Source: Hyaloraphidium curvatum (taxonomy: Eukaryota > Monoblepharomycota > Hyaloraphidiomycetes > Hyaloraphidiales > Hyaloraphidiaceae). Taken from it: 64,000 nucleotides of DNA. Position 1 is the stretch's first letter; each line of letters opens with the position of its first letter. The notes beneath the pieces were generated by a model. That model ran no database searches and was not told where the DNA came from. It worked only from the letters and a program-made list of their open reading frames with translations. The stretch spans positions 124,001 through 188,000 of the forward strand of contig JAIVFI010000009.1 in NCBI GenBank assembly GCA_025558095.1. The letters run 5' to 3'. The translations under genes were made by a program, and so were the position numbers. Shown one piece after another: positions 21,535-45,569 of this stretch.

Positions 21535-23862
21535 TTAGAGCCTGCCCGCGCGGCTGTCCCTTTTCAGGTGCACCACGACGGGAGCAACATCGCCGCGCCG
21601 GTACGGAGCCACCAGCCCCCTCGCCATTAGCTCCTGCCCCGACATGATCCGCCGCGCGCCGCCGTAGTAGTAATCCAGCGAATACCTGGCGTCCGCGTCC
21701 AGCCCGTGCAGCCTGACCGTCGCATCCTTCTGGTTCGCCGAGCCCGAGGGCCGGTAGTGCAGCACCATGGCTTCCGATCGGTCCTTGGTCACGAACATCA
21801 CCGCGACCTCGTTGGACTTTGCGTGGGATCCGTACGGCGACCGCAGCCGGAACATGTCCCCCAGCTGCACGATGTGCCGGCGCTCCTTGAACCACGCCAC
21901 GTCCCTCGCGACCTCGTCCCACTCCTTGGCCGGCATCTTGGTCAGGTCCAGCTCGTATCCCAGCACGCCGGCCATCGCCACCGCCGTCCTGGCCCTGAGC
22001 GACGTCTGCCTCCCGGTCTGGTGGTTGGGCACCGCGCTCACGTGGCTCGACATCACCATCGCGGGCAGGAAGAGGCTCGCCCCGTGCTGTATCTCCAGGC
22101 GCGCCACGGCGTCCGTGTCGTCCGAGATCCAGTACTGCCCGAAGAAGCTCATGAGCGCGTAGTCGGACCGCCCGCCGCCGCCGGCGCAGCCTTCCCAGAT
22201 GATGTCGGGGAACGCAGAGGTGAGGCGGAAGAAGAGGGTGTAGACGCCGAGCACGTGCCGGTGCCTGTACCCTTCGTACCGGGCGTCCCGCTCGGATCCC
22301 CAGGCTTCCGCGGGGCCGGAGTGGGCAAACTGCCTGTTGCTGTCGACCTTGCAGTAGCTTATCCTCGCCGATCGCAGCACCGCCGAGATGGCGTCGAACA
22401 GGTGGTCGCGCACCTGCGGCAGCGACATGTCCAGGATGAGCTGGTTCCGGCCCTCGGTCCGCGGCCGGCCTGCGAACGAGAGGCACCAGTCCGGATGGGC
22501 GCGGTACAGGTCCGAATCGGGGGAGACCATCTCCGGCTCGAACCAGAGCCCGAAGGAGACCCCGCGGGCGTTGATCCTGTCCGCCAGGGGCGCCAGCCCG
22601 CCGGGAAGCTTCCTCCTGTCCACGAACCAGTCCCCCAGGCTCGAATTGTCGCTGTCCCTTTTGCCGAACCACCCGTCGTCGAGCACGAACAGCTCGATCC
22701 CCAGGTCGGCGGCCTTGTCCGCGATCTTCTCCAGCTTGGCCTGGTCGAAATCGAAGTACGTCGCCTCCCAGTTGTTGCACAGGATCGGCCTGACCCTCTC
22801 GGCGTACTGCGGCGGGATCACGGAATACCGCACGTGGTCGTGGAGCATCTGGCTGAGCGCCGTCAGCCCGCGGTCCGATTTGGCGAGCACCGCCTCGGGC
22901 GCCGAGAATTTGGCACCGGGGGCGAGCGTCCACGAGGCCACCTCGGCGTTCAGTCCGCCCTGCACCCGCACGCCCTCGTCCTCGTCCCGCTCGACCGACA
23001 AAGTCCAGTCGCCGCTGTAGGCGACCGCGAACGCCCACGCGTCGCCGGCGTATTCCGTCGTCGACGAATCGCACAGGTATATTCCGGGCCAGGACTGGTG
23101 CGAGGAGATGCCGTTGCGCGAGCGGGTCGAGAAATGGGAGGCGACGGGCTCGCGGACGAGGGAGAACTCGCGGGCCCAGGAGCCGCGCGTGCAAATCACG
23201 TCCGGGGGCGAGCCGGACGTGTTGCGGTCCAGCGAGGAGGACGACATGATGTCGACCGAGAAGGAGTAGGCGCGCGCGAGCCGGATCGGGTTCGTGGGGT
23301 TGGCGTTGACAAAAGTGACGTTCCGGAGGAGCACCGAATCTGCCGTGGAAAACACCGTGTAGTGAATGAGCACCCTGAGACCCGTGACGGCGTCCGAGAG
23401 CGCGATTTCCAGGGTCTCGGCCGCGGCACCGAGGGGCACCCTGCCTCCGGGCAGCACGCCCTCAGCTTCGGGCACCTTTTCGGCCAATCCGGCATGGATC
23501 CGGTGCGATTCGTAGACCAAGTCCAACGCCGGCTTCGTGCCGCCGCCCTCGAGGAGCTCGTAGGCCTTGAACGCGGGCGGGCGGAAGTCGCCGGCTTCGC
23601 CGTACGGGTACTCGAGCGGCAGCCTGTTGAGCGAGAATGGCGGGCCGGGATCGGTCCCCGGGATGGAGTACTCGCGCGGCTGCGCGGGAATCGCGTCCAA
23701 CACGAACGAATCGGGGTGGTGGGAGAGGTCGCCGAGCGGGGAGCCCCAGTGCACGAGGACGGGCCATTTGCCGTGGTAGAGGCCGACGACGTACTCCTGG
23801 CGCCCGGCGCGGATGCGGAAGATGCCGAGGCGCGCGTCGTGAGAGATCAGCGGCGATGCCAT
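21535..23862 (-). CDS. GH36-type alpha-galactosidase, intronless
   Basis: 775 residues from the ATG at 23862; the open frame continues upstream but the family N-terminus begins here. An N-terminal beta-sandwich (about 1-310) is followed by a TIM barrel with NNWEATYFDF, LFVLDDGWFG, WFEPEMVSPDSDLY, SYCKVDSNRQ (nucleophile Asp, where most relatives have KWDMNR), EGCAGGGGRSDYAL and WISDDTDA (acid/base Asp). The C-terminal domain has YYYGGARRIMSGQELM. It hydrolyses terminal alpha-galactosyl residues of oligosaccharides. No signal peptide is evident at this start, which suggests intracellular action. Single-exon structure among spliced neighbours and bacterial-style motifs suggest acquisition from bacteria, but this is inference. 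Confidence 0.93.
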   Translation of the reverse strand: MASPLISHDARLGIFRIRAGRQEYVVGLYHGKWPVLVHWGSPLGDLSHHPDSFVLDAIPAQPREYSIPGTDPGPPFSLNRLPLEYPYGEAGDFRPPAFKAYELLEGGGTKPALDLVYESHRIHAGLAEKVPEAEGVLPGGRVPLGAAAETLEIALSDAVTGLRVLIHYTVFSTADSVLLRNVTFVNANPTNPIRLARAYSFSVDIMSSSSLDRNTSGSPPDVICTRGSWAREFSLVREPVASHFSTRSRNGISSHQSWPGIYLCDSSTTEYAGDAWAFAVAYSGDWTLSVERDEDEGVRVQGGLNAEVASWTLAPGAKFSAPEAVLAKSDRGLTALSQMLHDHVRYSVIPPQYAERVRPILCNNWEATYFDFDQAKLEKIADKAADLGIELFVLDDGWFGKRDSDNSSLGDWFVDRRKLPGGLAPLADRINARGVSFGLWFEPEMVSPDSDLYRAHPDWCLSFAGRPRTEGRNQLILDMSLPQVRDHLFDAISAVLRSARISYCKVDSNRQFAHSGPAEAWGSERDARYEGYRHRHVLGVYTLFFRLTSAFPDIIWEGCAGGGGRSDYALMSFFGQYWISDDTDAVARLEIQHGASLFLPAMVMSSHVSAVPNHQTGRQTSLRARTAVAMAGVLGYELDLTKMPAKEWDEVARDVAWFKERRHIVQLGDMFRLRSPYGSHAKSNEVAVMFVTKDRSEAMVLHYRPSGSANQKDATVRLHGLDADARYSLDYYYGGARRIMSGQELMARGLVAPYRRGDVAPVVVHLKRDSRAGRL

Positions 23863-24305
23863 GGCGAATGCGGCCTCAGAATGCGGTGGTGACGACGCGT
23901 CGACGGTCTCGACGGGGTTACTTGACTTGATCTGCACTCGTCCGATCACCCAAGATCTTCTGCGCCGGGATGGAAAGCTAAGAGATCCGAGAGCACGAGC
24001 TCGTCTTCCTTCTTCCTCGCTGTTGAGATGGGTCAATTGAGGAGCGTCTTTGCGGGTCCGAACAAGCATTCGAGGCTACAGGGGCCCATGGCAAGGATGC
24101 AGGCATCAAAGCAATCGGCAAAGTCCTGTTACGAAAGCATCCATCCTGTCTTTCGAGGTTGCTTCGGTGGCATTTCCTGCCGCTTGCCGGGGGTGGGCGA
24201 GAAATCGGTCATCCGCCGCCTGCCCGCCGCCCGTGCCCGTGTCGATCGGACTCCGAGGGCCGAGGACGGCATTCGCCCCCGGAATCCCCCGCGCATCCGG
24301 AGGCG
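23863..24305. promoter_or_regulatory. Divergent upstream region, GH36 and Ubp8 genes
   Basis: 443 bp between start codons pointing away from each other. Open frames here are extensions without ATG context or domain content. Nothing else recognised. Confidence 0.4.
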
Positions 24306-36775: not shown

Positions 36776-38343
36776 TTAGGCATCGGTGGTGGCACGGAGG
36801 CGGCGGATGTCGCTGGGCGACCAGTGGAGGCGCCCGCGATCGACAGCACGGGAAAGCCCGGCGTGGAGAACACGACTGGGATAGCCGCGCTCAAGCCGCA
36901 GGTGGCGGAGGAGAGTGTCCGCATCCGTCAGCGCATCCGCGAGTTGCGAGCAGTTGGCATCAATGGCGCGGAGGCCCATCGCAATGGTGTTCACGAACAT
37001 GTGATCGGGCAGGGTGTTGAAGCCGTAATCGGGGAAGAGGCGAACGGGAAAAGGAAAGGAGAGAACCTTGTTGTAGTAGCGCCGATGGACGCGGCCGTCC
37101 GCCGTGAGGGTGTACGTGCACCGAAGGTGCGTGCCGCCGCGATCGGTGGCGCTGACACGCTTCAGACCGAGGCCCGCAGCCTCCCGCCGCACGGAAGATG
37201 GGAAGCACCAGGGCCTCGAGGATGTGCCACGGCGCGTTCCAGATCAGGATGTCGTCGACGTAGCGGTGCCAGTCCCATGAGAGGCGCGGCAAGGTAAGGT
37301 AGAGAGAGCGGAAGACGTCGTACTCGATCATCAGCACCACCAGGTCCGCGAAACGGCCACTGCCAATGCCACCGATCGGCACGCCGCGGATTTGGAGGAG
37401 TACGGCGGTGCCCAGGGTGCAGTAGAGATTGGAGAGCAGCGTGCGGAGGAGGCGGCCGAACTTTGCCGGGGAGTAATGGAAGAAACAGTCGCGCCGGTAC
37501 GATGCACGCGGCCGGAACGCCCCGCGGTATCTTCCTGTGCGCTCGCGCCAGATGCACAGATAGAGGCCGGGAAAGAGAAAAGCCAGGCATGAAGGAGCCA
37601 GGGTAGCAGGGTGTGCAGAAGGCCGACAGCCGGAACCGACTCCTACATCTGGTCGACGTCGGTGACAACCACCGACGTCGCGTGCTGCGGCGCCACGTCA
37701 TGAACGGCGTCATTGGTCTGGTACGAGTTGAAAAAGTTGATGTGCTGGCCGGCATCGGCGCGTTCCGCGGTCAGCAGGGCACGGAGCGGGTCGGCGACAT
37801 CGTAAGGCCGCAGAGGGCCGCGGCATCGACCTCCGAGTGCGCAACCTCGTGGCAGGCAACGATCACCCGCACAGGAAAGCCGGGTTTGTGCAGCTTGAGC
37901 GAGGCATAGATCCGTGGGAGGCGCTGGCGGGCAGGGGGGCCACCAGCTCCGAGCGCGGCAAAGTCGCGGGCCATCAAGCCAAGGGCCGTGCCCGTGGAGA
38001 CGCCATGTTGCACGGCATAGGAGGGCGTGTCGAGGACGGCTTTGGCGACCAGGAAGCGGTAGAGATCCGGGCATATCCAGCCGAACATGGTGGGGGCTTT
38101 GTCGATCATGATCGTTGCCAGGATCGGGAGAAGACGCCGAAGCTAGTCGCGGAAGCCCGGGGCGGCAGCCGGGGACGGCGCAATCACCGGTTCCGGGGCG
38201 GCCAGGAGCGCGGCAGTGAGCCGGCGGAGCCAGGAAGCGGCATCGCGAAAGGGGACGGTAGGCTCGGCCTCCCGTGCCTGCCCAGCCAGCGCACTCCCAA
38301 GGCGAACGGGCCGCGCCGCCGTTAACCAGGCGCAGGCCCGCAA
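36776..38343 (-). mobile_element. Decayed Penelope-like reverse transcriptase
   Basis: Read on the minus strand, RT blocks appear in order but in changing frames. At ~38110 a TIMIDKAPTMFG segment; ~37900 LKLHKPGFPVRVIVACHE (the KxHKPxxPxRPIV block of Penelope-like RTs); ~37665 TSVVVTDVDQM (motif A); ~37380 RGVPIGGIGSGRFAD (motif B); ~37250 WHRYVDDILIW (catalytic YVDD). A C-terminal thumb-like part runs to 36776. In-frame TAGs sit at 38143-38145 and 37643-37645, and at least three frameshifts separate the blocks. No GIY-YIG endonuclease, terminal repeat or target duplication was found. The element is inactive as written. Assignment to Penelope-like rather than another class rests on the KxHKP block. 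Confidence 0.7.
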
Positions 38344-38375: not shown

Positions 38376-40349
38376 ATGGACTCCGACAGCGAAGTCGCAC
38401 GGGCCCGCGCTGTGGTCGCGCTAAAGCAGGCGAACCTGGACTCTCTCGGGGCCGCTGCGCCGGCACCCGAGCGCCTGGTGGCGGAGGCGCGCCTCAACGT
38501 GGCGCTTGCGGCCCTCGATGTCGCGGAAGCGGTACACGAAAGTGAGCTCGCGGCGGACACGGTCGCGGCGGCGGCGGCGGCTCTGGAATCGGCAGAACGT
38601 GCTTTGCAACTGGCCGTCGCCGACGTCCCCGCTGCCGAGGATGGTGGCAACGGCGACGCCGGCGAGAAGGCGAGAACAGCTCTCGCACAAAGGCGACTCG
38701 AGCACGTGGAGAGGCAGCGCGCATTCGAGGCACGGAAGCTCGAACTGGAGGAGAGACGGCGCGAACTCGGGGACAGGCGGCGCGAACTCGGGGACAGGCG
38801 GAGCGAGCTCGCAGACAGGCAGCGCGCTCTTGAGGAGAGGCAGAACCGGGATCTTGGAAGCGCTTCGCCGCCACCCGCCCCGAGGGAGCTCATATCTTCG
38901 CCGAGCCAGCGCGTACGCTCCCAGATCCAGCACAAGCTCCTCAAACGCTGGATGCCGACGGCGCAGATCGTGGCAGCAATGGTCGAGCTCCACTCGCCGC
39001 GGGCCAGAGACGATGCCGCTGTCCGAGATTGGCAGCGCCTGGTCACATGGATCGAAAAGGGCCCGCCTGAAGGTGCCTTTTCGCGAACTGAGTTCTTTTC
39101 ATCGCAATCCGATGAACACCGGAAGCAGGTCGCTATGGTGTCACAGGTCGCGCTGTATCTCGAAAAGCGTCTTCGCGATCGTCAGCGGGGCAGAGACAGC
39201 GGCATCGGCTCTACACCCGTTTGGATCAACGAATTATCGACTGCGAAGTCAAACAGATTGGACCTCGCTCTTTTGGCTGTAGAGGACAGCGGTATCGCCA
39301 ACGTTCGAGTCGTTGTGGACGGCGTGGTGGGGTCCAGCTCGATGAACAAAGAGGCACCGATTGATGCCTACGTCTACGAAGTGGCCTCAACCTCTCTGCC
39401 GGACCACAGGCCCTACTACATGTTGGGCATCGCGCTTGGTCTGCCCCGGAACGGTGCGATGGAGGCCAGTGTCTGGGCGTTCTCCGGCTTCAACGACAAG
39501 AGGCAAGAGGATCAACATCGATCTCTCTTGTTTTCCGGCACCGGGGGTTGCTCGGCAGGGGAACTTATGGCACGACTCGAAGCCGCGGCGTGTGCCTTTG
39601 CCGAAGCCGAGCCCGAGGACGCGCTAGTTCAGTTTGAGAACGAGGCACACATCTTCCGGACGGCAAACGGGATGCTTCGGAAAGTTGTTTTCAATCCGGA
39701 ACGGTTAGAGCAGTGGAGGGACGTAACTGAGGCTGCCGAGAGGCTGTATGAGAAGCGCGGAGGAGCCGTCTGTCGCTTGCGGGACCGCCGGCCCCTTTTC
39801 GTCGAGTATCCCTTTTGCAAAGGACAGCACCTGCCGGGCACTGCCGCGGAGACTGCGAGTGCAGCACGGGCACTCGCCGAGTTGCACGCCGTGGGATTCA
39901 TTCACGGTGACATCCGCCTGTCGAACATCATCTTTTCCGGAAGCGGCGCGGCCCATTTGATTGATTTTGACCTCGCGGGAACAGTGGGCTCGCCGTATGT
40001 GTCGAACTACAACACCGAAGTCGCGGACGGCGTGCGGGCAGCCGGTGCAGATTCGGGACGACGGATGGAGTTTGATCACGATTGGGAGGCGCTTGCAGGG
40101 ACGTTTTCCAAGTGCCTGAAGCCACCGGAAGACCAGCGGAGCGCATGGGAAGCCGCCTTGGGACTGCTGCGAAGCGGGAACTTCAGCGGACTCGATGCGC
40201 TGGGCCCCTTGCCACTGGAGCCGACGGCCGCTGCTCGGGAGCTGTTCGGGGAGCCCGCAACAAGAGCACGTGGAACGGCATCTCCGGCATCGCTTGGGTC
40301 ACCCGTTACCGGGGAGCCGCCGTCAAAGCGTCTGCGCACGGAGACTTAG
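38376..40349 (+). CDS. Coiled-coil protein with atypical kinase domain (Crinkler-type)
   Basis: 657 residues from the ATG at 38376 (an in-frame ATG at 38274 is possible). Residues 1-100 are Ala/Glu helical. About 105-160 is an Arg/Glu/Leu coiled coil with RRRELGDRRRELGD repeats. A middle domain (about 170-390) contains NRLDLALLAVED and DAYVYEVAS, which might be a degenerate nuclease-like core. At 509 lies HGDIRLSNIIF and at 527 HLIDFDLAG, i.e. a kinase catalytic loop of the HGDxRxxN type with a DFD metal motif and a glycine-containing segment after it. That pattern is known from Crinkler (CRN) and related fungal kinase-like proteins. The C-terminus ends in SKRLRTE, a possible nuclear signal. 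No signal peptide. Domain call moderate; substrate unknown. Confidence 0.65.
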   Translation: MDSDSEVARARAVVALKQANLDSLGAAAPAPERLVAEARLNVALAALDVAEAVHESELAADTVAAAAAALESAERALQLAVADVPAAEDGGNGDAGEKARTALAQRRLEHVERQRAFEARKLELEERRRELGDRRRELGDRRSELADRQRALEERQNRDLGSASPPPAPRELISSPSQRVRSQIQHKLLKRWMPTAQIVAAMVELHSPRARDDAAVRDWQRLVTWIEKGPPEGAFSRTEFFSSQSDEHRKQVAMVSQVALYLEKRLRDRQRGRDSGIGSTPVWINELSTAKSNRLDLALLAVEDSGIANVRVVVDGVVGSSSMNKEAPIDAYVYEVASTSLPDHRPYYMLGIALGLPRNGAMEASVWAFSGFNDKRQEDQHRSLLFSGTGGCSAGELMARLEAAACAFAEAEPEDALVQFENEAHIFRTANGMLRKVVFNPERLEQWRDVTEAAERLYEKRGGAVCRLRDRRPLFVEYPFCKGQHLPGTAAETASAARALAELHAVGFIHGDIRLSNIIFSGSGAAHLIDFDLAGTVGSPYVSNYNTEVADGVRAAGADSGRRMEFDHDWEALAGTFSKCLKPPEDQRSAWEAALGLLRSGNFSGLDALGPLPLEPTAAARELFGEPATRARGTASPASLGSPVTGEPPSKRLRTET

Positions 40350-40648: not shown

Positions 40649-41300
40649 TTACTTGCCCTCCAGCCCCACCAACCTCTCCACCAGCGGCCTCGTCGGCCGC
40701 CCCGTGATTGCCCCCCTCTTCAGGTCCCGGGTCCGCCTCCCCCACCGCCATCACCCCCTTCCTTGAACCTGGACATGAGCTGTTGGCAGCCCAGCCGCCC
40801 GCGCTGAACGACGGCGCGCAGACGGCCAGTCTGGCGGGCCATGAGACCATCGACATCCCAGTCTTTGCCGTCCGATTTGGTGCGCGGGGGGGCAATCTCC
40901 CGGGACCAAATGCGAAGCTGCTCGTCCGCCGCCGGGTGACGCCGGCCGTAGGTCGTGACGGCGAACCAAACGAGGTTGTGCACGAGGGGATCGGGAACGT
41001 AAAACTGGTCCGCGAGGTCCTTGGCCTTGGCTTGAACGGCCCGGTGGTCTCGTCGCGGGAGTTCGTCGACTGCGAAGTTGCGACGGCGCAGGGTGACGAC
41101 GGTGACGTCCACGAGATCCCTCCCCATCATCTTTCGCGAGGCCGTCGACGAACTCCCGCAGGAACGCGGCGGCGGTGCACGCGGCCCCCGGGCGCCCGCC
41201 AACGTTCTTCAGATCGGCGGTCTGGGATTTCATCTGAGAGAGGTACGTCGCGGGAAGGCGGACGCAAGGGTCGGCTCCCGCAAGGGACGCGGAGGCAGCT
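40649..41300 (-). pseudogene. Inverted partial copy of leucyl aminopeptidase, interrupted
   Basis: The minus strand from 41300 encodes ATYLSQMKSQTADLKNVGGR, then CTAAAFLREFVDGLAKD. This matches the last exon of the intact gene at 43732-45569 and stays nearly identical down to 41105. After a 346-nt interruption the match resumes at 40758 (GVMAVGEADPG) with a deletion in the GYLK region and ends at a stop corresponding to the real terminus (GLEGK). Short deletions and frame changes make it non-functional. The copy is in opposite orientation, about 4 kb from the parent. Confidence 0.85.
40759..41104 (-). other. 346-nt insert inside the aminopeptidase relic
   Basis: This segment has no counterpart in the intact aminopeptidase. 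On the minus strand it begins GTCACC (the GT taken from the last shared bases) and ends AAGGAAG, so it has GT...AG edges. It is open in one frame throughout, encoding a normal-looking mix (DQFYVPDPLVHNLVWF, TKSDGKDWDVDGLMARQ). It may be an inserted exon-sized fragment of another gene, a long intron, or a mobile element. No similar sequence was seen elsewhere in the window. Confidence 0.55.
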
Positions 41301-41699: not shown

Positions 41700-43622
41700 T
41701 CACGACCTGGGCACGGCCACCACGAGCACCGCTTCCTCCTCGCCTCCCCCGTCTTCCCCATCGTCCTCGACCAGCATCCCCGACGGCACCTCGACCCCGA
41801 ACCTCTCGACCGCCACCGCCGCCAGCGCCATCCTCCCCTCCGCCTCCGCTTCCGATCCCAGCAATGCGCGCGCGACGGGGAGCAGCTCCTCCACCGTCCC
41901 GCGCCACCCGTCTCCGATGATCCCTGTTGCCGCCTCCCCACCGAGGGTGCGCTTGACCTCCCCCTCGAGCCACCCCGCGTGGCGGTGGGCGAGGTACAGC
42001 GCGAGGATCTCGTCCTCCGCCGCTTCCAGCCTCCCTGCTTCGGGGTCGACGGCCTGAACGGCGGCAGCGAGCTCCTCCGCGAACCCCGAGTCCCCGAACG
42101 CGCTCCCGGCCGTCAGCATCATTGCCCTCCCGGCCAAGCTGCGCACCGCCTCCCCGCACGCACGCATCGCCGACCCCAATATCTCCAGTTGTCCCTCCCT
42201 CAATATCTTGGCCATCGCAGCGCGGTGTCCCCTGTCCCCGCCGCGCTTCCCGAGCCGCCGCCGCCAGTACCCCTCCGCCGCCCCGTGCGCCGCCTGCAGA
42301 GCGTCGCGCTTGCCGGCCAGCAGCCCGTGCAGCCTCGCGTACGCCCTCAGCACCGCCGCCGGCCTCGCCAGGACCGCATCCGCCGCTTCCCCGGCATCGA
42401 CCGCGTCGAGCTCCCACCCCTCGAGCGAAAGCACCCCCACCAGCCCGACCAACCCCCCCGGCACCCCGCCCTCCCCGCGCCGGATGAGGAACGGGTGCTG
42501 CCCCTCCCCCGTGCCCTCCCCCAGCACCGCGTCCCGCGCCGGCAGCAGCGCCTCCCTGCGTTCAAAGAGCGGGTCCGCCGCGCGGCCGTCGTTGGCGAGC
42601 ACCCTGACCGCGTCGGCGGGGTTGCCGGGGAGACAGAATGCGTAGCCGACCAGGAGCTCCTCGTTCGTTTTGCCGCCGTAGTTGTTGAGCGCTTCCTCCC
42701 CCTTGGCCAGCTCGACGCCCGTGGGGAGGGAGAACGAGACGGAGGGGGGGGTGGACCGCCATTCCACCCTCGCGGTCGGGGAATGGTTGAGCATGTCGAG
42801 GAAGGGGAGGAGGGCGAGGCCGCACGGTTCGCGGGAGGGATCGCCGAGCTCGAACGTCGCCGTCCCCGAGGGAGCGGGGGAGGAGAAAGGAGTGTTCCGG
42901 GCGGGGAAGGCGCGCGAGTAGACCGCCGAGTAGGCCCACAGCCACTTGTCGTACTCCAGCGTGCCGGGAGAGAACAGGGAGCCGGCGGCGAGGCGGGCGT
43001 GCTCCATGTCGGCGCGGAGCTCGGCGACGCGGGCGGGGAGGAAGCCGGGGAGGTTTGTGCCGGCGAGCTCGCGGGAGACCTCGTCCTCGGTCCAGTGCAG
43101 GGGGTCGTCGAATTCCCTTGGGAGGATGGCGAGGTAGGGAAACCACGGGGAGGGAAGATCGGGCGCGGTGGGAGGCGCGTCGACGCCGCCGTGGGCGTCG
43201 AGCGAGAAGTCCGAGTTGGGCCGCTGGAACATCTCGTGGACGAGGAAGGCGAGCAGCAGCGTGCGGTGCCGGTTGGGCATCTCACCGCCCTTGGCTTCCA
43301 GGTCCGACAGGTATGCGACGATCTTCCCGCCGACTTGGCTTTTGGCCGCCACCAGCTCGTCGAGCACCAGGGCCGAGGGGATTGAGGCAAACTCGCCGAC
43401 CAGGGGGGTTGCGGCGACGACCGTCCGTCCCGTGGGTCCTTGGACCTGCTGCAGCGAGTCCATGCCCTGTGCTCCGTTGAGCCGGCACCACGACAGGAAG
43501 AGATCCATCGATGGGTCGTTGATGGGGACGAAGGCGTCGACGGGGTTCGCATTGCCTGATTCCGGCTCGCCGGCGGCGGTCAGTTCGGCGCCATCGTCGG
43601 CAGGGACCTTCCTCTTTCCCAT
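41700..43622 (-). CDS. SET-domain protein methyltransferase (LSMT/SETD3-like)
   Basis: Single exon, 640 residues from the ATG at 43622. The split SET domain shows GRTVVAATPLVGEFASIPS near the start, a large insert, LLPFLDMLNHSP (about 270; NHS core motif) and LNNYGGKTNEELLVGYAFCL (about 310; post-insert Tyr and the usual NYG[GP]KxNEELL wording). A helical C-terminal Rubis-subs-bind-like region follows. Members methylate lysine or histidine of cytosolic proteins such as ribosomal proteins, elongation factor or actin. The tail is acidic (VEDDGEDGGGEEE). Divergent from leucyl aminopeptidase with only 109 bp between starts. Target unknown. Confidence 0.9.
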   Translation of the reverse strand: MGKRKVPADDGAELTAAGEPESGNANPVDAFVPINDPSMDLFLSWCRLNGAQGMDSLQQVQGPTGRTVVAATPLVGEFASIPSALVLDELVAAKSQVGGKIVAYLSDLEAKGGEMPNRHRTLLLAFLVHEMFQRPNSDFSLDAHGGVDAPPTAPDLPSPWFPYLAILPREFDDPLHWTEDEVSRELAGTNLPGFLPARVAELRADMEHARLAAGSLFSPGTLEYDKWLWAYSAVYSRAFPARNTPFSSPAPSGTATFELGDPSREPCGLALLPFLDMLNHSPTARVEWRSTPPSVSFSLPTGVELAKGEEALNNYGGKTNEELLVGYAFCLPGNPADAVRVLANDGRAADPLFERREALLPARDAVLGEGTGEGQHPFLIRRGEGGVPGGLVGLVGVLSLEGWELDAVDAGEAADAVLARPAAVLRAYARLHGLLAGKRDALQAAHGAAEGYWRRRLGKRGGDRGHRAAMAKILREGQLEILGSAMRACGEAVRSLAGRAMMLTAGSAFGDSGFAEELAAAVQAVDPEAGRLEAAEDEILALYLAHRHAGWLEGEVKRTLGGEAATGIIGDGWRGTVEELLPVARALLGSEAEAEGRMALAAVAVERFGVEVPSGMLVEDDGEDGGGEEEAVLVVAVPRS

Positions 43623-43731
43623 CGCAGCGTCGCCTCCGGTTTGCAGCTGGTTCTGAAGCCTGGACAGCGGGCTCAGTGCGTGTTTACAGTTGTTGTGGGC
43701 GCGTCGAGCCGCCGATCGCCGGGAACCGCGA
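43623..43731. promoter_or_regulatory. Very short divergent promoter, SET protein and aminopeptidase
   Basis: 109 bp must serve both 5' leaders and promoters; one of the tightest divergent pairs here. Confidence 0.45.

Positions 43732-45569
<1,838 letters not shown>

What the first reader, a model, noticed from the sequence alone, without database searches (positions are those of the whole stretch)
38376..40349. Coiled-coil protein carrying a Crinkler-style HGDxRxxN/DFD kinase
Seen: a long Arg/Glu coiled coil, a middle domain with LDLALL...DAYVYEVA that may be a nuclease-like core, and a kinase catalytic loop of the form HGDIRLSN with DFD. Known: Crinkler and RHS-like proteins of oomycetes, chytrids and Rhizophagus combine nuclease-like and kinase domains. 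Inference: a member with an unusual coiled-coil head and a C-terminal KR-rich end, sitting beside a retroelement relic. It could act in genome conflict or nuclear signalling.
Basis: partly seen in the sequence, partly recalled or inferred. Interest (0 to 1): 0.6.

Follow-up and report, generated by a model that had tools for sequence, protein, structure and literature searches.

The report
Fungal three-part HGD-kinase gene, two copies
This is a real, intact fungal gene present in two diverged copies, whose protein joins a repeat-built helical head, a strongly conserved middle part of unknown kind and an unusual kinase; its layout recalls fungal spore-killer proteins, but it fails the tests for being one, or for being a Crinkler.

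Summary
The ORF at 38376-40349 is a real gene (657 aa, no intron). An intact paralog lies elsewhere in the genome at 74% identity, with overall dN/dS about 0.2. The C-terminal domain is a kinase: Pfam, NCBIfam, PADLOC and PDB profiles all land on residues ~494-540. It is the HGD type, related to APH, Kdo and Bud32 kinases, not an RD kinase like Crinkler CRN8. The Arg/Glu head is built on 21-bp repeats and differs in length between the copies. The middle domain is the most conserved part (82% identity, dN/dS ~0.09) and matches no Pfam or PDB entry. It contains no D/E-x-K motif in either copy, so the nuclease reading is not supported as an active nuclease. No Crinkler header was found. The host is an opisthokont, most likely a fungus. 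The closest known layout is the SPOK spore killers: repeat-variable coiled coil, nuclease, Kdo-like kinase. SPOK membership fails on the catalytic lysine, QxxxY and the cysteine cluster. Best reading: a nuclear kinase of the SPOK/Crinkler-RHS conflict type whose middle domain is a non-catalytic or unrecognised module. Single-sequence structure predictions failed, so the middle fold stays open.

The parts
38376..40349 (+). Whole gene: single-exon ORF, 657 aa
   Evidence: intact paralog at G000:C2:288211-290172; dN/dS about 0.2
38376..38669 (+). Head, residues 1-98: Ala-rich predicted helix with heptad-like hydrophobic pattern
   Evidence: 101 of 5000 shuffles reach the a/d pattern of residues 1-85; 60% identical to the paralog
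38673..38849 (+). Arg/Glu heptad repeat, residues 100-158, built on a 21-bp tandem repeat (38737-38839)
   Evidence: the paralog has its own 21-bp array with a different unit; length differs between copies
38898..39650 (+). Middle domain, residues 175-425: most conserved part, no known family; contains RLDLALL, VVVDGVV and DAYVYEVA
   Evidence: 82% identity and dN/dS 0.09 for residues 179-430; no Pfam match; no convincing PDB match; no D/E-x-K; no further copies at E <= 10
39651..40205 (+). Kinase domain, residues 426-610
   Evidence: Pfam Pkinase 2.1e-5 and APH (26.3 bits, over its cut-off, for the isolated domain), NCBIfam Bud32/Kdo kinase/LanKC, PADLOC MkoA/mad6/PD-T4-6; matches cover the catalytic loop region, outer borders inferred
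39681..39683 (+). Lys436, candidate beta-3 ATP-binding lysine (LRKVVF)
   Evidence: invariant in both copies; role inferred
39903..39926 (+). Catalytic loop HGDIRLSN (residues 510-517)
   Evidence: identical in both copies
39963..39971 (+). Metal-binding motif DFD (residues 530-532)
   Evidence: identical in both copies
40074..40085 (+). DHDW (567-570), the alpha-F-like D-x-W position of kinase C-lobes
   Evidence: HDW kept in both copies; role inferred
40317..40337 (+). Basic tail PPSKRLR, nuclear-signal-like
   Evidence: kept as PPAKRPR in the paralog; role inferred
40758..41118 (-). Old fragment of a LINE-like 3' end, neighbour only, not part of the gene
   Evidence: 29 matches listed in the genome, the longer ones about 80% identical to this one; the other copies read are ~99% alike with variable 5' ends

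Best explanation
A two-copy fungal gene for a three-part, probably nuclear, HGD-type kinase of the kind used in genetic conflict: helical repeat head, conserved middle module, kinase. I think it most likely that the head multimerises or selects partners, the middle module binds a nucleic acid or protein target without a classical PD-(D/E)XK active site, and the kinase phosphorylates that target or the protein itself as the switch. Shown: two intact copies under purifying selection, a kinase domain with the core motifs, a head whose repeat length differs between copies, absence of D/E-x-K in the middle domain and of a Crinkler header in the protein. Inferred: nuclear location, multimerisation, target binding and the conflict role.
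For: Kinase evidence from several profile libraries plus PDB profiles. K436, HGD, N517, DFD and HDW are all kept in the paralog. Middle domain dN/dS is 0.09, so its lack of an ExK lysine is not decay. The head's 21-bp arrays are independent in the two copies, like the variable coiled-coil repeats of SPOKs. The order coil-middle-kinase and the likeness of the kinase to Kdo kinase are features described for SPOKs. REase plus kinase is a known Crinkler-RHS layout.
Against: Sequence similarity to SPOK or Crinkler proteins could not be tested directly, because no such sequences are held here. Only two copies exist, on interior parts of long contigs, with low dN/dS: more like stable duplicates than fast-evolving drivers. 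No data on expression, location or activity. AlphaFold without an alignment gave unusable models (mean pLDDT 36 and 50), and a fold search with the latter found nothing.
Confidence: 0.4

Rival explanations
1. An active SPOK-like single-protein toxin and antidote: the middle domain damages DNA and the kinase neutralises it.
For: Same order of parts as SPOK (coil, middle, Kdo-like kinase), repeat-variable coil, basic tail, single-exon gene.
Against: The SPOK lysine needed for killing (K240) has no counterpart: no D/E-x-K in the middle domain of either copy; the only QxxxY of the window protein (257-261) precedes the candidate Asp instead of following it; no C-x3-C-x13-C cluster before the kinase. 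No Pfam or PDB nuclease match.
Confidence: 0.15
2. A Crinkler / Crinkler-RHS member: nuclease-like plus kinase protein.
For: REase plus kinase makes up about one sixth of Crinkler-RHS C-termini, and headers in that class are diverse. RLDLALL...DAYVYEV resembles a degenerate PD-(D/E)XK core by eye.
Against: No Crinkler header, HGD not RD loop, no recognisable REase, no family expansion.
Confidence: 0.15
3. A lineage-specific regulatory kinase (FunK1-like or another eukaryotic-like kinase) with an ordinary cellular role and an orphan regulatory domain.
For: Weak FunK1 match (PF17667, E 0.005-0.04, below cut-off). Strong purifying selection and only two copies.
Against: PF17667 cut-off not reached; the genome's own PF17667 matches that were read are ordinary HRD kinases. 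Length-unstable repeat head.
Confidence: 0.27
4. A spurious ORF in GC-rich DNA.
For: Long antisense ORFs are common here.
Against: Paralog intact over the full length with dN/dS 0.2, and kinase profile matches.
Confidence: 0.01

Closest known systems
SPOK spore-killer proteins (Podospora, Fusarium; PMC6660238, PMC12693581, PMC9972908)
   Same: Repeat-length-variable coiled coil, middle domain, C-terminal eukaryotic-like kinase compared with Kdo kinase; same order
   Different: No PD-(D/E)XK lysine, no QxxxY in place, no cysteine cluster; only two copies; SPOK homologs are described as distributed across Pezizomycotina
Crinkler-RHS (CR) proteins with REase plus kinase (PMC5289972 citing Zhang et al. 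2016; CRN8, PMC3426532)
   Same: Kinase at the C-terminus after a middle domain; nuclear-signal-like stretch
   Different: No Crinkler header; HGD loop where CRN8 is RD; REase not recognisable; no expansion
FunK1 fungal kinases (PF17667)
   Same: Fungal kinase family; weak profile match to the catalytic region
   Different: Below the family cut-off; only the catalytic loop region aligns
Eukaryotic-like kinases: APH (PF01636), Kdo kinase, Bud32; defence kinases PD-T4-6, mad6, MkoA
   Same: Profile matches over residues ~494-540, the catalytic loop and DFD region
   Different: Matches cover mainly the catalytic loop; none aligns to the head or middle domain

Membership tests
Protein kinase-like superfamily | Catalytic loop H-x-D-x4-N, metal-binding DF(D/G), beta-3 Lys, C-lobe D-x-W | tested here: met
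   a folded model was not obtained
Crinkler (CRN) | N-terminal Crinkler header (PF20147) | tested here: not met
   no PF20147 match in the protein; none found in the genome (control silent)
Crinkler CRN8 type | RD kinase catalytic site | tested here: not met
   HGD here; CRN8 is R469-D470
Crinkler-RHS REase-kinase | REase-superfamily domain before the kinase | tested here: inconclusive
   no Pfam or PDB match, no D/E-x-K, AlphaFold model unusable
SPOK | Order: coiled coil, middle domain, kinase | tested here: met
   repeat head; coiled coil itself not proven; middle; kinase; SPOK layout
SPOK | Catalytic Lys of PD-(D/E)XK (K240 in SPOK3) | tested here: not met
   no D/E-x-K in the middle domain of either copy
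SPOK | Cysteine cluster C-x3-C-x13-C-x5-H-x7-H before the kinase | tested here: not met
   only C392 and C406 are kept in that region
SPOK | Sequence homology to SPOK proteins (IPR052396) | not testable with these tools
   no eukaryotic protein collection or InterPro model held
SPOK | Toxin and antidote activity / drive | not testable with these tools
   needs expression or crosses
FunK1 (PF17667) | Score over the Pfam cut-off (24.1 bits) | tested here: not met
   13.1 and 16.2 bits for the two proteins

The most novel reading that the evidence does not exclude
A second, independently built type of single-gene conflict protein in fungi, outside the known SPOK range, in which a non-PD-(D/E)XK middle domain is the harmful or targeting part and an HGD kinase is its switch.
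Probability: 0.12. Interest if true: 0.75.

Novelty: new variant of a known kind. Interest (0 to 1): 0.4.

Why it matters
SPOKs are a rare case of one protein acting as both poison and antidote, and how the kinase protects is an open question. A gene with the same layout but without the nuclease lysine would show either that the layout serves roles other than DNA damage, or that the middle domain can act in another way. Its middle domain is an orphan under stronger constraint than the kinase, so it is a worthwhile target for a structure.

Tried and rejected
Relatives in viral contigs, bacterial and archaeal genomes and phages: none for the protein. A motif scan HGDIRxxN-12-DFD in prokaryote genomes gave 11 kinases that share only the catalytic loop region. 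AlphaFold on the middle and kinase domains from a single sequence: pLDDT 36 and 50, not usable; the fold search of the latter was meaningless. A weak middle-domain match to the BUB1 N-terminal domain (E 0.18) was rejected as chance because Pfam gave nothing at E <= 10. PF17667 matches elsewhere in the genome that were read proved to be ordinary HRD kinases. The small-subunit rRNA search failed twice, so the host is placed only by EF-1alpha and chitin synthase. The idea that the two copies moved with a larger segment: flanks show no similarity except a scattered LINE-like piece, which at dS ~0.8 says nothing either way.

Full report
What is there. The + strand ORF 38376-40349 encodes 657 residues without an intron. 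The genome (31.9 Mb, 55 contigs) holds one more copy, at G000:C2:288211-290172, intact and 74% identical; the only other match is an ordinary kinase at 39% over 51 residues. DNA similarity starts at the ATG and stops at the stop codon. Both ATGs have an AAATGG context. Nei-Gojobori counts give dS 0.77 and dN 0.15 overall. By part, dN/dS is about 0.8 in the first 100 residues (where dS is low, 0.30), 0.30 in the repeat, 0.09 in the middle domain, 0.17 in the kinase and 0.31 in the tail. So this is a real, selected gene pair, not an open frame by chance.

Head. Residues 1-98 are Ala-rich with a heptad-like pattern. Residues 100-158 are a charged 7-residue repeat made by a 21-bp tandem array. The paralog has its own 21-bp array with a different unit, and the copies differ by gaps of 7 and 5 residues there. 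The hydrophobic a/d pattern of 98-160 is not above shuffled sequence, so a single charged helix is as likely as a classical coiled coil.

Kinase. Full-protein scans give Pkinase 2.1e-5 (paralog 5.9e-7) and APH 8.9e-5; the isolated domain passes the APH cut-off (26.3 against 23.2 bits). NCBIfam adds Bud32, Kdo kinase and LanKC; PADLOC adds MkoA, mad6 and PD-T4-6. PDB profile matches are to Ser/Thr and Tyr kinases from 1e-5. Most of these matches cover only the catalytic loop. Lys436, HGD512, Asn517, DFD and HDW are identical in both copies. HGD in place of HRD is the form usual in eukaryotic-like kinases such as APH and Kdo kinase (established knowledge; the profile similarity agrees). The genome's own ordinary kinases that were read carry HRD. 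A kinase fold was not confirmed by prediction, because the single-sequence model is poor.

Middle domain. It is the most conserved part yet has no Pfam match at E <= 10, no convincing PDB match, and no other copy in the genome at E <= 10. In a PD-(D/E)XK reading, Asp296 and Glu335 (or Asp315) could be the acidic pair, but the position of the lysine is Ala/Thr (or Val), and no D/E-x-K occurs anywhere in the middle domain of either copy. Low dN/dS argues that this is not decay. The domain may be a non-catalytic relative of that fold or another fold; the model (pLDDT 36) cannot decide.

Host. EF-1alpha carries the opisthokont insertion (KGWKKEGKAGEVTGK...; the insertion as an opisthokont mark is established knowledge), no light-harvesting family is found, and fungal-type chitin synthases are strong (2e-62). 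A fungus is most likely; the species is unknown. Introns are present in other genes (EF-1alpha and chitin synthase match in pieces), so a 658-codon single exon is worth noting but proves nothing.

Comparison. Crinkler: header not found (the genome search had no positive control), and CRN8 is an RD kinase. Crinkler-RHS proteins do include REase plus kinase forms with diverse headers, so distant kinship stays possible. SPOK: tripartite coil-nuclease-kinase, variable coil repeats, kinase likened to Kdo kinase, K240 needed for killing, D667 for resistance, cysteine cluster required for resistance. The window protein meets the layout and kinase type but fails the lysine, QxxxY and cysteine-cluster tests. 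It may therefore work along similar lines but is not filed as a SPOK.

Surroundings. A LINE-like 3' fragment lies 0.4 kb downstream (40758-41118); another copy of that element lies about 5.7 kb downstream of the paralog (C2:295850-296222). The family has 29 listed matches; the others read are ~99% alike with variable 5' ends. A rough count puts the chance of a random locus lying within 6 kb of one at about 1%, so the double proximity is suggestive but post hoc.

Verdict. A real, conserved, two-copy fungal gene with an HGD kinase and an orphan middle domain; a conflict-type role is plausible (0.4) but not shown; the Crinkler label is not supported.

Noticed in passing
window 40651-41252 and 45293-45567: Two inverted copies of a ~275-bp sequence (88-93% identical); in the first a ~360-bp LINE 3'-end-like piece sits at 40758-41118 where the second has only 30 bp.
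   Followed up: partly
L016-L024 (e.g. L018:1430-3373, - strand): A LINE-like family with copies ~99% identical and 5' ends of varying length, suggesting recent activity; its 648-aa frame has no Pfam or PDB match.
   Followed up: partly
window 42347-44606, - strand: By eye a SET-domain (Rubisco LSMT/SETD3-like) protein; Pfam on the ORFs tried gave nothing.
   Followed up: no
window 21535-24069, - strand: Complete GH36 alpha-galactosidase (Melibiase, E 8.7e-139).
   Followed up: no
G000:C46:640-7827 and 39296: Row of at least four kinase genes near a contig end, all weakly matching PF17667; two of the C46 genes were read (L005, L006) and are HRD kinases with DFD in place of DFG.
   Followed up: partly
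window 36776-38109, - strand: Frame-broken relic with HRYVDDILIW, reverse-transcriptase-like by eye, single-copy, unmatched by Pfam and PDB.
   Followed up: partly
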